64,000 nucleotides of DNA from Halorubrum sp. F4 (GTDB lineage Archaea; Halobacteriota; Halobacteria; Halobacteriales; Haloferacaceae): NCBI RefSeq assembly GCF_027257195.1, contig NZ_JAPDFS010000002.1:208344-272343 (forward strand), in the 5' to 3' direction. This document shows positions 13,400-56,784 of the stretch, piece by piece. The notes below the pieces were generated by a model that worked only from the letters and a program-made list of their open reading frames with translations, did not search any database and was not told where the DNA came from. The first letter of the stretch is position 1; the number at the start of each line of letters is the position of its first letter. The translations under genes and the position numbers were made by a program.

Positions 13400-13708
13400 A
13401 TGCCGGCGACAGTCGTGTACCGGGAGGAAGACGAGAAACTCGACGGGAGTCGGTACGAGATGGTCGCGTGGCAGGTCCCGGTGAGCGAGGACTTCCCGCA
13501 GGGGTTGAAGTATAGCTTCCAGTACATGGACGCTGACGGCGACACCCTCCTGCGGTACGACAACTCGCCGTACCACCTGGACGTCGGCCGGCATCATCGC
13601 CACCCACCCGAAGATGAGATCACGAAACTGGAGTTCACAGGTCTCTCCGACCTGATCGACGACTTCCAGAACGAGGTGAACGAGATCTATGAGCAACGAA
13701 CCGACTGA
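13400..13708 (+). CDS. TumE-like toxin of a type II-style toxin-antitoxin pair (DUF6516 family)
   Basis: 102 aa. The fold-defining segment is YSFQYMD (38-44), then RYDNSPYH (52-59) and RHHRHPPED (64-72), followed by a helix LSDLIDDFQNEVNEI. The R-Y-D-N and the His-rich turn before PP match the DUF6516/TumE family as I know it. The next gene, overlapping by 20 bp, encodes an HTH protein, as in TumE-TumA pairs. Cellular target is not established from the sequence. The start follows an AGGAGA box. Confidence 0.72.
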   Translation: MPATVVYREEDEKLDGSRYEMVAWQVPVSEDFPQGLKYSFQYMDADGDTLLRYDNSPYHLDVGRHHRHPPEDEITKLEFTGLSDLIDDFQNEVNEIYEQRTD

Positions 13709-14156
13709 CACCGAACCCACGCACGACGAGTTCACGCCCGACTCGGACGACGTCGAATATCCTTCGACCCTCCGCATCACGTCGCTCCCGGCGGAGCAGG
13801 CCCAAGCGGCGGCCGTCGAGCGAGCCGAACGGTGGGAGGAAGGTGAGGAGGTGCCACACGTCGTCAACTTCGAGGACCGAGCACGGCTCCGCCAGCTACT
13901 CACCGACCGGCGAATGGAGCTGCTCGAGACGGTGATGGATGACCCACCGGAGAGCATTCGCGCACTGGCTGACCGGCTCGATCGTGACGTCCACGACGTC
14001 CACGACGACCTGTACCTGCTGGCCGAGTACGACGTCGTCCACTTCGAGGAGGAGGGCCGCGCGAAGAAACCGTACGTCCCCTACGACACGGTCCGGATCG
14101 AGGTCGAGTTCGGCCTGCCGCGCGGCGAAGGATCAGATCCGGCCGTATCGGCGTAG
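13689..14156 (+). CDS. TumA-like HTH DNA-binding antitoxin (HVO_A0114-type)
   Basis: 155 aa. An acidic N-terminus precedes a winged helix (about 75-140): RRMELLETVMDDPPESIRAL, then ADRLDRDVHDVHDDLYLLAE as the recognition helices, and the wing YDVVHFEEEGRAKKPYVPYD. The MarR/ArsR-like fold suggests it binds its own promoter (candidate operator 13370-13388) and neutralises the upstream 102-aa protein. The genes overlap by 20 bp, so translation is probably coupled. The pair sits just inside tRNA-Pro, a common place for mobile cargo. Confidence 0.72.
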   Translation: MSNEPTDTEPTHDEFTPDSDDVEYPSTLRITSLPAEQAQAAAVERAERWEEGEEVPHVVNFEDRARLRQLLTDRRMELLETVMDDPPESIRALADRLDRDVHDVHDDLYLLAEYDVVHFEEEGRAKKPYVPYDTVRIEVEFGLPRGEGSDPAVSA

Positions 14157-53648: not shown

Positions 53649-53829
53649 GGGTCGCCAACGGAACCGGCGGTGATAGTTCCGGGGGGCGGAGCCCGTCAGC
53701 GTCGTGGACCTTTATGCCCTACCCGCCCGAACCGGGCGACGTGATCCCCTCCACGACGACTCCTTCGAGTTCGCCCGCGGTCCCGTCACGGTCGCCCGCC
53801 AGCCCTTCGCGGTCGTTCTCCACTCGTCG

Positions 53830-54642
53830 ATGTATCTGACCCTGTTCGGGGGTCTCTTCGTCGGACTCGGTCTCGCGATGGCGTGGTACGGAGCCCGTCC
53901 GCTCGTCGTCCTTCCGCGGCTGCTCCGGACGGAGGTCCGCCGACCCGACGCGGTGACCGACGGCGGAGACGGCGAGTTCGTCGCGGTCCGCGGGACCGCG
54001 CGTGCGTCGGCGGAAACGCTCAGGAGCCCGTTCACCGGAACCGAGTGTCTCGGGTTCGAGTTCGAGGTCACCGAACGCCAGCCGTTCGGGATCGGGGTCC
54101 CGTGGTTCCACGCGCACCTCGACGACGGGATCGCCACCGCTCCGTTCTCGCTGGACGATCCGAACCACCCGAGCGTCCCCGATGATCCGAGCGTCCCCGA
54201 TGACCCGGGCGTCCTCGACGACGCGGCCGGCGGCCTCGCCGTCCGCCCGTCGTCGCGGCGGTTCTCGCTCGACACGGTCCCGACGGTCGTCCGCGTCGGC
54301 GCGGGAGAGACGCCCCCCGACCGGGTGCGCCGGTTCGTCGACGTCCGCGAGGGACTCGATCCGGTCGCCGGACGGATCGCGGCGATCCCCTTCCTCGGCG
54401 CTCGCCGCTACGTCGAGCGCCGGATCGACCCGGGCGAGGAGTATCTCGTCGCCGGCCGGATCGAACGCGACGGGCGCGGGGAGAACGGGACGACCGGGAT
54501 CGCGCTCTCCGGCGACCTCGTGATCACGGAGCGATCGATCCGTGGGTTCGTGCTCTCGAGACTCCGTCGAGCCGCGTTTCCCCTCCTCGTCGCGGTCGTG
54601 TTCGTGGTCGCGGGGCTGTGGGGGATCGCGATCGGGGCGTGA
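53830..54642 (+). CDS. Two-helix membrane protein with a GIDE/MULAN-like domain
   Basis: 270 aa from the ATG giving MYLTLFGGLFVGL. A first helix (about 2-22), a soluble beta-rich domain (about 40-235; VRGTARASAETLRSPFTGTE, CLGFEFEVTE) and a final helix (about 248-268) resemble the membrane domain of GIDE/MULAN E3 ligases, but no RING finger is present. A short DDPSVPDDP-type repeat interrupts the domain. An in-frame GTG 42 codons upstream would give a longer version. Function unknown. Confidence 0.65.
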   Translation: MYLTLFGGLFVGLGLAMAWYGARPLVVLPRLLRTEVRRPDAVTDGGDGEFVAVRGTARASAETLRSPFTGTECLGFEFEVTERQPFGIGVPWFHAHLDDGIATAPFSLDDPNHPSVPDDPSVPDDPGVLDDAAGGLAVRPSSRRFSLDTVPTVVRVGAGETPPDRVRRFVDVREGLDPVAGRIAAIPFLGARRYVERRIDPGEEYLVAGRIERDGRGENGTTGIALSGDLVITERSIRGFVLSRLRRAAFPLLVAVVFVVAGLWGIAIGA

Positions 54643-54728
54643 CGATGAGTCATGGACTTCCACCTCCGCTCCCGGCGAGTCTCCGGAACGACGATCTCGC
54701 CGGGCTTACAGATATATGAATAAAACGA

Positions 54729-54740
54729 AGATATATTGCG
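54729..54740 (+). promoter_or_regulatory. TATA box of the HTH/TumE-like pair
   Basis: ATATAT at 54731-54736 is 26-31 bp before the GTG at 54762, giving a leaderless start. The 54700-54740 stretch is distinctly AT-rich, with AGATATAT present twice. Confidence 0.5.
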
Positions 54741-54761
54741 AAACGTCCCATACGGACCGTC

Positions 54762-55289
54762 GTGATCGATTTCGACCCGGCTCCCGAATCCGATGGTGAA
54801 CGGCCGCGGTGGCAGGAGGGAACTGACACGTTCGATCGGATATACGACGTCGTTCTCGGCGTCTCGTCGCCGACCGCGTATACCGACATCGCTGACCTCG
54901 CGGGGTGCTCGCCGAACGCGGCGAAGAAGCATCTCGACCGTTTGGCGGAGATGGGCGTCGTCCGTGCGGATCACGACGGTCGTCCCGCGAGGTACGAACG
55001 GAACGCGGGATATCTCGAATGGCAAGAGGCGAGCCGGATCGCCGCCGACCTCTCCGTCGAGGAGATCGTCGACCGTGTCGCGGACCTCGAGGAGCGTCGA
55101 TCCGAATACGAGGCACGGTTCGGAACCACGGATCCGGCCACAGTCTCCGTGTTCGAGACTGCCGACCACGGGACGATCCACGACCGAATGAACGCGGTCA
55201 GCGAGTGGCGGGGGGTGATCCGCGATATCCGGCTCTACGAGTTCGCCCGCCGGCTCTCACAGAACGACGGCCATCTGATACCAGCCTAA
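54762..55289 (+). CDS. HTH DNA-binding protein, first gene of a TA-like pair (possibly DUF7342)
   Basis: 175 aa, GTG start. HTH at about 25-75 (TDIADLAGCSPNAAKKHLDR, then LAEMGVVRADHDGRPARYER as wing). The rest is an alpha-helical domain (EEIVDRVADLEERRSEYEAR) that could dimerise or hold the partner protein. The next gene starts on the A of this stop codon (TAATG), so the two are cotranslated. By analogy with TumA it is the probable antitoxin; direct evidence is lacking. Confidence 0.75.
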   Translation: MIDFDPAPESDGERPRWQEGTDTFDRIYDVVLGVSSPTAYTDIADLAGCSPNAAKKHLDRLAEMGVVRADHDGRPARYERNAGYLEWQEASRIAADLSVEEIVDRVADLEERRSEYEARFGTTDPATVSVFETADHGTIHDRMNAVSEWRGVIRDIRLYEFARRLSQNDGHLIPA

Positions 55290-55729
55290 TGGGTCCACCA
55301 TCGGAGGATCCGACGGCCGATTCGACCGGCCCGCCGGACCGACAGACGTTGCGCCTCCTGGAACGACGGTTGGCGTCCGACCCGCTCGTCGCGGAGACGC
55401 TGTTCGAGCCGGACCCGTACGAACCACGGCTCCTCCGGACGAGGATCGACGATGAACGATATCCCGATCCGGCGACTGCGGCCCGGATCGACGTCCGATG
55501 GTTCACGACGGACGACTTCTCGATACACTATCTCGAGGATCGGGCCGACGAAGGCCACTGGGAGTGTCGCTGGGATCGACACCCGAACACGCACAACGCT
55601 CGGGTACACTTTCACGAGCCACCGACGGGCGCTGCGGTCACGGATCTCGAACTCTCCTCGATCCACCCGCTCGAAGTCTACTCGACGGTGGTTACCGCGA
55701 TCGAGCAGCGGATCCAGGACCTCTGGTGA
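55289..55729 (+). CDS. TumE-like protein, partner of the HTH gene
   Basis: 146 aa. After a 65-residue lead the domain reads DFSIHYLED (76-84), then RWDRHPNTHN (94-103), HFHEPP (107-112) and LELSSIHPLEVYSTVVTAIE (120-139). The order R-(Y/W)-D-x2-P...H-x-H-x-P-P, then a Leu-Glu strand and a long helix, matches the TumE-like protein at 13400-13708 closely. That similarity suggests a divergent TumE-type toxin. Its start overlaps the HTH stop by one base. Activity unproven. Confidence 0.68.
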   Translation: MGPPSEDPTADSTGPPDRQTLRLLERRLASDPLVAETLFEPDPYEPRLLRTRIDDERYPDPATAARIDVRWFTTDDFSIHYLEDRADEGHWECRWDRHPNTHNARVHFHEPPTGAAVTDLELSSIHPLEVYSTVVTAIEQRIQDLW

Positions 55730-55770
55730 GTTCTCGGGACGGTCCGATATCGAGCGTTCGGTGAGCGGTC

Positions 55771-56784
55771 TCAGTCGACTCGGACGACCTGCTTCCCGAC
55801 GTTGTCCCCCGAGAAGAGCCCGAGGAACGCGTCCGGCGCGTTCTCCAGCCCCTCGACGACGGTCTCTCGATGCTCGATCTCGCCGTCGGCGACCCACTTC
55901 GAGAGCCGGTCCGCCGCCTCGTCGAACCGGGTCGCGTAGTCGCTCACCAGCAGTCCCTGAACCCTCGCACGCGCGGCGATGAGAAGCGGGAGCTTCCGCG
56001 GCCCGGTGGGCGTCTCCTCGTCGTTGTAGTGGGCGATCTGCCCGCAGACGGCGACCCGTGCGTCGAGGTTCAGGTCTCGGAACACCGCGTCAGTGATCGG
56101 GCCGCCGACGTTGTCGAAGTAGACGTCGACCCCGTCCGGGGCGGCCTCGGCGAGCGCCGCGCCGTAGTCGTCCGCGGTCCGGTAGTTGATCGCGGCGTCG
56201 AAGCCGAGGCCCGCCGTGAGCCACTCGGTCTTCTCGTCGGTGCCCGCGAAGCCGACGACGCGACAGCCGTTCAGCTTCGCGATCTGGCCCACGACGGACC
56301 CGACCGCGCCGGCCGCTCCGGAGACGACGACCGTGTCGCCCGGCTTCGGCTCGCCGACCTCGAGCAGGCCGAAGTACGCCGTCCGACCGGGCATCCCCAG
56401 GACGCCGAGGTACGCGGGCGGGTCGGCCACGGCCGGGTCGACGGGTGCGACGTCGTCGGCGTCGAGGACCGCGTGGTCGGCCCACGTCCCGTTTCCAACC
56501 ACGAGGTCGCCGGGTTCGTACCGGTCGTCGGCGCTCTCGACCACCTCGCCGACGACGCCACCCTGCAGCGCGTCGCCGACCGCCCACGGCTCCGCGTACG
56601 ACTCGGCGTCCCGCATCCGCCCGCGCATGTACGGGTCGACGGAGAGGTAGCGGACGCGGACGAGCAGTTCGCCGGCGTCGGGACTCGGGCGGTCTCGCTC
56701 CCGGAAGTCGAAACAGTCGAGGTCCGGTTCGCCGCGGGGCCGCTCGGCCAGGATCCACTCGCGCGTGGTGTCGGTATCGGTCAC
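55771..56784 (-). CDS. NADP-dependent oxidoreductase, CurA/leukotriene-B4 reductase type (MDR)
   Basis: 337 aa. LSVDPYMRGRM near the start, the Rossmann segment VVVSGAAGAVGSVVGQIAKL, and YFDNVGGPITDAV are typical of 2-alkenal/curcumin reductases, which lack zinc. It should reduce alpha,beta-unsaturated carbonyls with NADPH. Convergent with the HTH/TumE-like pair. Confidence 0.9.
   Translation of the reverse strand: MTDTDTTREWILAERPRGEPDLDCFDFRERDRPSPDAGELLVRVRYLSVDPYMRGRMRDAESYAEPWAVGDALQGGVVGEVVESADDRYEPGDLVVGNGTWADHAVLDADDVAPVDPAVADPPAYLGVLGMPGRTAYFGLLEVGEPKPGDTVVVSGAAGAVGSVVGQIAKLNGCRVVGFAGTDEKTEWLTAGLGFDAAINYRTADDYGAALAEAAPDGVDVYFDNVGGPITDAVFRDLNLDARVAVCGQIAHYNDEETPTGPRKLPLLIAARARVQGLLVSDYATRFDEAADRLSKWVADGEIEHRETVVEGLENAPDAFLGLFSGDNVGKQVVRVD

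What the first reader, a model, noticed from the sequence alone, without database searches (positions are those of the whole stretch)
54762..55729. Divergent TumE-like protein paired with an HTH gene: possible undescribed toxin-antitoxin type
The 146-aa protein shares with the TumE-like protein at 13400-13708 the order: aromatic strand (Y/F-S-x2-Y), R-(Y/W)-D-x2-P, H-x-H-x-P-P after 15-16 residues, a Leu-Glu strand and a long helix. Its start overlaps the stop of an HTH gene by one base and a leaderless AT-rich promoter precedes both. The gene order (HTH first) is the reverse of the TumE/TumA pair and the HTH is of a different family, so this would be a new pairing. Known: TumE/TumA pairs exist. 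Inferred: this is a relative.
Basis: partly seen in the sequence, partly recalled or inferred. Interest (0 to 1): 0.78.

Follow-up and report, generated by a model that had tools for sequence, protein, structure and literature searches.

The report
Self-regulating TumE-like toxin gene pair
In salt-loving archaea a DNA-binding protein gene and the gene behind it travel together as a small mobile pair that appears to switch itself off, and the second protein is a distant relative of a known growth-stopping toxin, so this is probably a widespread toxin-antitoxin system that has not been described.

Summary
Window 54762-55289 encodes a DUF7342 (PF24033) winged-helix protein; its stop overlaps by one base the start of a 146-aa protein (55289-55729) that no Pfam, NCBIfam or PADLOC model claims. 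That protein belongs to a large, essentially haloarchaeal superfamily, remotely homologous to the translation-blocking toxin TumE. Pfam's TumE model is a sub-threshold hit (E<=1) in 11 of 38 members (next family 3 of 38). Profile comparison scores 30.7 against at most 23.2 in 200 shuffles. The predicted fold has two helices and seven strands, as reported for TumE. Pairing is nearly absolute: 233 of 247 family ORFs have DUF7342 upstream; the 14 others are cut by a sequence end (6), broken or rearranged (6), or parted from the HTH gene by an insertion (2). A two-box consensus lies over the promoter (71 upstream regions) and occurs once in this genome. The pair sits in a variable slot. Best reading: a type II-like toxin-antitoxin module. 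Toxicity is untested.

The parts
54631..55776 (.). Variable slot holding the cassette between two conserved neighbours
   Evidence: homology to five relatives stops at 54628-54630 and resumes at 55777-55784; G026 has about 115 bp there, G037 has other ORFs
54709..54719 (+). Operator box 1 (CAnATATnTGA), upstream of the TATA box
   Evidence: 71 non-redundant upstream regions; single site in the genome
54728..54738 (+). Operator box 2 (AAGATATATTG), which is also the TATA-like element
   Evidence: haloarchaeal promoter elements from PMC4983044 (passages)
54751..54752 (+). TA at -11/-10, fits the haloarchaeal -10 WW element; transcript probably leaderless
   Evidence: conserved CgTA; PMC4983044 passages
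54762..55289 (+). DUF7342 winged-helix protein, putative antitoxin and autorepressor (175 aa, GTG start)
   Evidence: PF24033 E 1.6e-24, 87 bits against a cut-off of 31.6
55289..55729 (+). TumE-superfamily protein, putative toxin (146 aa)
55517..55624 (+). Codons 77-112: F-S-x-H-Y, R-W-D-R-H-P and H-F-H-x-P-P, the region aligned to TumE and the presumed active site
53704..54642 (+). Left conserved neighbour (312-aa protein)
55771..56784 (-). Right conserved neighbour (337-aa protein, oxidoreductase by my reading), recurrently beside DUF7342 cassettes
13400..13708 (+). Comparison only: genuine TumE (PF20126)
   Evidence: E 1.6e-18, 66.9 bits
13689..14156 (+). Comparison only: its partner, HVO_A0114 (PF25212)
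   Evidence: the same pairing in 30 of 30 TumE loci

Best explanation
A type II-like toxin-antitoxin module. The DUF7342 protein (175 aa) binds two AT-rich boxes, one of which overlaps the TATA box, and represses its own, probably leaderless, two-gene transcript [operator suggested by conservation; binding and repression inferred]. Translation passes on through a one-base stop/start overlap to the 146-aa protein, a divergent branch of the TumE toxin superfamily [remote homology shown; activity inferred]. That protein probably blocks translation, perhaps by cutting RNA with the conserved R94/D96/H98/H107/H109 cluster [inferred from published TumE, whose RNase activity is itself unproven]. The DUF7342 protein also binds and neutralises it [inferred from near-obligate pairing and matched divergence]. 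The cassette moves horizontally and settles in variable slots [presence/absence between relatives shown; transfer inferred].
For: Pairing: 100 of 101 family ORFs in the 123 loci then held have a DUF7342 ORF just upstream, the other being cut by the locus end; 233 of 247 in 253 loci. The 14 misses are 6 cut by a locus or contig end, 6 broken or rearranged, and 2 full-length genes whose HTH gene was separated (L155) or cut to a stub (L169) by an insertion. Asymmetry: DUF7342 genes without an intact partner are commoner, 6 of 31 in the set taken by search score and 7 of 19 in a set I picked. Matched divergence: HTH and toxin pairwise identities correlate at r 0.95 over 183 pairs (best of 500 permutations 0.08), 0.71 for pairs under 55% toxin identity. 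Operator: consensus over 71 upstream regions, up to 2.3 bits against about 0.07 background; one site in its own genome; in 10 relatives chosen because they carry a close homologue, 12 sites, 10 at the cassette by coordinates and 2 elsewhere at 3 mismatches. TumE link. Mobility.
Against: No growth effect, binding or RNase activity has been shown for any member. P0001 itself does not hit the Pfam TumE model, and no member that I scored reaches its gathering score (best 22.4 against 23.4 bits). The alignable stretch is only about 35 columns. A sister branch that also follows DUF7342 has lost the R/D pair and the second His (GWHxDxxH...HFQ) and shows no TumE similarity of its own (E 0.12), so not all members can share this active site. 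The pair also sits on main chromosomes (for example L141, L169). Asymmetric loss also fits an autorepressor with a dispensable effector, and the toxin-driven and HTH-driven samples were drawn differently; 19 of the 50 HTH-driven cases were picked by me largely because no partner was yet known beside them, which inflates the share without one. L250 has a nearly complete toxin frame and no HTH remnant.
Confidence: 0.6

Rival explanations
1. A self-regulating sensor cassette without a toxin: DUF7342 is a local repressor and the TumE-like protein a ligand- or nucleic-acid-binding co-regulator that relieves repression under some stress.
For: The operator-like site is found essentially only at its own promoter. 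The protein has drifted far from TumE, and one branch has lost the presumed catalytic residues. HTH genes occur without an intact partner (13 of 50 in a partly selected sample).
Against: A regulator with only itself to regulate makes little sense unless the second protein has an effect of its own. TumE homology, a variable slot and patchy multi-copy presence fit a toxin-antitoxin module better.
Confidence: 0.2
2. A toxin-antitoxin pair that now acts mainly as anti-virus defence (abortive infection), the toxin being released when infection disturbs the HTH protein. This overlaps with the best explanation, so the odds are not exclusive.
For: Variable insertion slot; cassettes of different branches beside the same gene in 6 of 44 genomes; several copies per genome and patchy spread.
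Against: P0001 has no PADLOC hit. Neighbouring genes were not scanned for defence functions. No homologue was found in phage records or viral contigs, which is neutral.
Confidence: 0.12
3. The resemblance to TumE is convergence of a short His/Arg/Asp-rich motif, and the fold is unrelated.
For: Only about 35 aligned columns, 17% identity, hhalign probability 50-72%. No coordinates could be superposed. The TumE model is weak (pLDDT 69).
Against: Scores exceed 200 shuffles. Of 24736 Pfam models TumE is the one hit most often, by 11 of 38 members at E<=1 (related sequences, so not independent). The predicted element counts match the published TumE description (PMC10584680).
Confidence: 0.1

Closest known systems
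TumE-TumA toxin-antitoxin superfamily (DUF6516, PF20126; Durairaj et al. 2023, PMC10584680)
   Same: R-[YFW]-D plus two His motif; two helices and seven strands (predicted); two-gene operon with a DNA-binding partner, partner usually first; no confident PDB match
   Different: Below the Pfam cut-off; extra N-terminal helix and strand relative to the TumE model of this window; partner is DUF7342; seen essentially in haloarchaea here; toxicity unproven
Haloarchaeal TumE / HVO_A0114 pair (PF20126 / PF25212), such as window 13400-14156
   Same: Same genome, HTH partner, remote homology of the toxin
   Different: Toxin first in 30 of 30 loci, a different HTH family, shorter toxin
DUF7342 (PF24033)
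   Same: The HTH protein is a member (87 bits, cut-off 31.6)
   Different: Pfam gives no function; the partner proteins that I scanned have no Pfam family above its cut-off

Membership tests
TumE (PF20126) | Pfam gathering score of 23.4 bits | tested here: not met
   P0001 no hit at E<=1; best family member 22.4 bits, in G041 (placed)
TumE (PF20126) | Conserved R-Y/F-D and two His | tested here: met
   R94, D96, H107, H109 in P0001; invariant or nearly so in A2 and A4. In the more diverse A1, R94, H107 and H109 hold but D96 falls below 90%. TumE invariants R52, D54, H65, H68. Not kept in the GWHxD sister branch
TumE (PF20126) | Two helices on a seven-stranded antiparallel sheet | tested here: inconclusive
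   Element counts agree in a predicted model, pLDDT 81 (a further 4-residue helix, 8-11, lies in the low-confidence tail); strand order, antiparallel pairing and superposition not checked
TumE (PF20126) | Profile similarity above chance | tested here: met
TumE (PF20126) | Growth arrest through inhibited translation | not testable with these tools
   Needs expression
Type II toxin-antitoxin system | Two small adjacent co-directional genes, obligately paired | tested here: met
   the HTH gene can occur alone
Type II toxin-antitoxin system | Antitoxin autoregulates through an operator at its own promoter | tested here: inconclusive
   Conserved, cassette-specific operator-like boxes; binding not shown
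Type II toxin-antitoxin system | Antitoxin protein binds and neutralises the toxin | not testable with these tools
   Only matched divergence, r 0.95
DUF7342 (PF24033) | Pfam gathering score of 31.6 bits | tested here: met
   87 bits
HVO_A0114 (PF25212), partner of haloarchaeal TumE | HTH protein matches HVO_A0114 | tested here: not met
   P0002 has no PF25212 hit at E<=1

The most novel reading that the evidence does not exclude
DUF7342 plus TumE-like genes form one of the largest toxin-antitoxin superfamilies of haloarchaea, several per genome. Each branch carries its own operator code, and one branch (GWHxDxxH...HFQ) has rebuilt or lost the TumE active site while keeping the pairing, so the modules have shifted from RNase-type toxicity to another effector activity, possibly virus defence.
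Probability: 0.3. Interest if true: 0.8.

Novelty: new variant of a known kind. Interest (0 to 1): 0.62.

Why it matters
If true, it gives a function to an abundant pair of unnamed gene families in haloarchaea, extends the recently described TumE toxins to a much more divergent branch with a new HTH partner, and supplies a ready operator for testing. The branches allow a direct test of whether the R/D/H site is the TumE active site, which is still unproven.

Tried and rejected
PDB and BFVD fold searches gave no match at E<=0.001; the TumE paper also reports no confident PDB match. PDB sequence searches: no match to the family; the HTH protein only weakly matches LexA-type HTH domains and a few others. 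No homologue of the second protein in phage records or viral contigs. 'Gene order reversed' rejected from PMC10584680. Two full-length toxins without an HTH gene beside them, L155 and L169, were examined and are explained by insertions; L250 is the nearest to a true orphan. Per-branch operators were sought in the eight largest HTH clusters, six of which had enough members; contrast to control is strongest for the cluster that holds P0001 and is partly the TATA box itself. My HTH conservation listing is not used: its end columns come from P0002 alone, because the other rows were trimmed to the domain. Alignment A3 used wrong-strand stretches and was dropped. Papers: PMC10584680, PMC4983044 and PMC5566976 read as passages, section 19 of the last in full; all other papers seen only in search listings.

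Full report
1. What is there. The window is G000:C12:208344-272343. Genome G006, listed as the same genus, has a contig of the same length and match position as a record titled Halorubrum yunnanense, so I infer Halorubrum. At 54762-55289 a GTG-started 175-aa gene encodes a DUF7342 protein (PF24033, 87 bits, cut-off 31.6). Its stop (TAA, 55287-55289) shares one base with the ATG at 55289 of a 146-aa gene ending at 55729. The 146-aa protein P0001 has no meaningful Pfam hit (one at 15.5 bits against a cut-off of 27) and no NCBIfam or PADLOC hit. The TumE at 13400-13708 is genuine (PF20126, 66.9 bits) and its partner is HVO_A0114 (PF25212).

2. The family. P0001 matches 72 of 98 genomes (own included, mostly genus and order relatives) at E<=1e-4, with up to nine matches in one genome. 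A profile search of 392 genomes of the phylum matched 70, all of the same genus, family or order. The rows shown without a match include 11 of the same family or order and 9 of the phylum; 302 more rows without a match were not listed, and I infer that they lie outside the order. At most ten candidates per genome were scored there. In GTDB contigs 303 stretches encode relatives; the 80 returned are nearly all haloarchaea by title. One short contig titled Syntrophomonadaceae (L130) is probably a binning error (my inference), and the other 223 were not seen. In plasmid records there are 137 with a match; the ten organism names shown are haloarchaeal genera, and 30 more names were not shown. In phage records and viral contigs there was none.

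3. Pairing. I counted a DUF7342 ORF on the same strand whose end lies from 30 bases inside to 400 bases before the start of the family domain. In the 123 loci then held, 100 of 101 family ORFs have one; the other is cut by the locus end. In 253 loci the count is 233 of 247. Some loci overlap, so copies are not all independent. Of the 14 misses, 6 are cut by a locus or contig end (L011, L133, L168, L246, L251, L253). Six more are fragments or rearrangements: L196, L202, two pieces of one broken gene in L201, a copy in L250 whose usual start is missing, and a fusion in L144. The last two are full length: in L155 a 1.6-kb stretch lies between an intact HTH gene and the toxin; in L169 only the last codons of the HTH gene remain next to the toxin. 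L250, which has a nearly complete toxin frame and no HTH remnant, is the nearest to a true orphan. Starting from DUF7342 genes instead, 37 of 50 have a partner in one frame, 3 a truncated or frameshifted one, and 10 none. Of these 50, 31 come from loci taken by search score (6 without an intact partner) and 19 from places I picked, largely because no partner was yet known there (7 without), so the overall share is inflated. Hits with an incomplete HTH domain or less than 560 bases of room downstream were dropped first, and a few of the 50 are near-identical copies. So the HTH gene can stand alone, while I saw no complete toxin gene with its usual leader but no HTH gene. Identities of HTH and toxin rise and fall together (r 0.95 over 183 pairs, best of 500 permutations 0.08; 0.71 among pairs under 55% toxin identity). 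Haloarchaeal TumE, by contrast, has HVO_A0114 downstream in 30 of 30 loci.

4. Relation to TumE. hhalign of 121 non-redundant family members against 30 haloarchaeal TumE sequences gives score 30.7, E 3.4e-5, probability 72%, over 35 columns. The reversed TumE profile scores 11.6; 100 column shuffles of TumE reach at most 23.2 and 100 of the family at most 17.2. A first, smaller family alignment gave E 1.6e-4 and probability 50%. The subgroup of L003 gives 29.7 (probability 59%) against at most 19.6 in 100 shuffles. Pfam TumE is hit, below its cut-off, by 11 of 38 members at E<=1, best E 2.8e-4; the next family by 3 of 38. The search for PF20126 in relatives also landed, below cut-off (22.4 and 21.8 bits), on two family members, in G041 and G048. 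The predicted structure of P0001 (53 sequences, pLDDT 81.4, pTM 0.75) has main helices 18-30 and 127-145 and seven strands. The TumE paper reports two helices on a seven-stranded antiparallel sheet (PMC10584680, passages). My own TumE model rests on three sequences and is weak (pLDDT 69); it shows four strands and a C-terminal helix in an order compatible with P0001. Coordinates could not be superposed. Neither PDB nor BFVD gave a match at E<=0.001.

5. A sister branch. Most DUF7342 genes that score best against Pfam are followed by proteins with GWHxDxxHPxLGxxHFQ-like motifs in place of CRWDRHP...HFHxPP. This branch is clearly homologous to the P0001 family (E 1e-17 over 123 columns) but shows no TumE similarity of its own (E 0.12). 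Either the active site was rebuilt or these members do something else.

6. Promoter and operator. Seventy-one non-redundant upstream regions (of 76 after two rows were dropped, the window's own duplicate and one with a misplaced start) give the consensus CAnATATtTGA, an 8-base spacer and AAGATATATTG ending 24 bases before the start codon in most, while the sequence further upstream is random (0.07 bit mean against up to 2.3 bits). The second box sits where a TATA box of a leaderless transcript should be, with TA at -11/-10. Haloarchaeal promoters are described with TATA, BRE and a -10 WW element, 72% of protein-coding transcripts of Hfx. volcanii are leaderless, and GUG starts occur among them (PMC4983044, passages). 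The first box is not part of a core promoter. The two-box pattern with up to three mismatches occurs once in this genome, at window 54709-54738. In ten relatives, chosen because they carry a close P0001 homologue, there are 12 sites: one at the cassette in each (by coordinates) and two elsewhere at three mismatches. Of the eight largest DUF7342 clusters six could be analysed; several show a different pattern at about the same place, with weaker contrast to the control. This fits a protein that regulates itself only.

7. Mobility. The flanking genes are conserved without the cassette. In G026 homology runs to 54630, then about 115 bases, then from 55777. In G037, with 95-96% identical flanks, the slot holds other ORFs. 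The right-hand neighbour gene has a DUF7342 cassette within its flank (about 1.5-2.5 kb held) in 6 of 44 genomes examined (of 47 that have the gene; three not examined), on either side and of different branches. A seventh, in G013, lies about 1 kb away and was cut by the locus.

8. Judgement. Shown: the pair, its near-obligate linkage, the conserved operator-like site, the variable slot, and remote similarity to TumE. Inferred: repression, toxicity, neutralisation, RNase activity, horizontal transfer. TumE toxins block translation, and the paper proposes neutralisation by diverse unrelated antitoxins; their RNase activity is proposed, not proven (PMC10584680, passages). I found no paper naming DUF7342, PF24033, PF25212, PF20126 or HVO_A0114. 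DUF6516 and TumE/TumA led to PMC10584680 as the only relevant paper by title; of the 450 papers only 20 were listed, and one search listed 9, none on this pair by title. A 2017 survey of Hfx. volcanii toxin-antitoxin loci names no TumE, but predates the name (PMC5566976, section 19). The library holds open-licence papers only, so absence there is not absence from print.

Noticed in passing
window 55771-56784 and L307, L318, L323, L324, L331, L335: This gene has DUF7342 cassettes of different branches beside it in 6 of 44 genomes examined (both sides in G006): a possible insertion hotspot or a functional link..
   Followed up: partly
L144:2541-3365 (+): ORF whose N-terminal part looks like transcription factor TFB (my reading) joined to a TumE-like C-terminal part: fusion or recombination junction..
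   Followed up: no
L155:2379-4000: About 1.6 kb between an intact HTH gene and an intact toxin gene, with a 419-aa ORF that resembles TnpB (my reading, not searched)..
   Followed up: partly
L394 and L399: DUF7342 genes without a TumE-like partner, followed after about 90 bases by a 235-aa protein that looks like an HTH plus nucleotidyltransferase (my reading)..
   Followed up: no
L381:1834-2787 (G037): The same slot holds a CBS-domain-like protein and a small protein of about 80 residues instead of the cassette (my reading, not searched)..
   Followed up: no
Most of L276-L299: Sister branch with GWHxDxxHPxLGxxHFQ-like motifs: no Pfam family in the six scanned, homologous to the P0001 family, lacks the TumE R/D pair..
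   Followed up: partly
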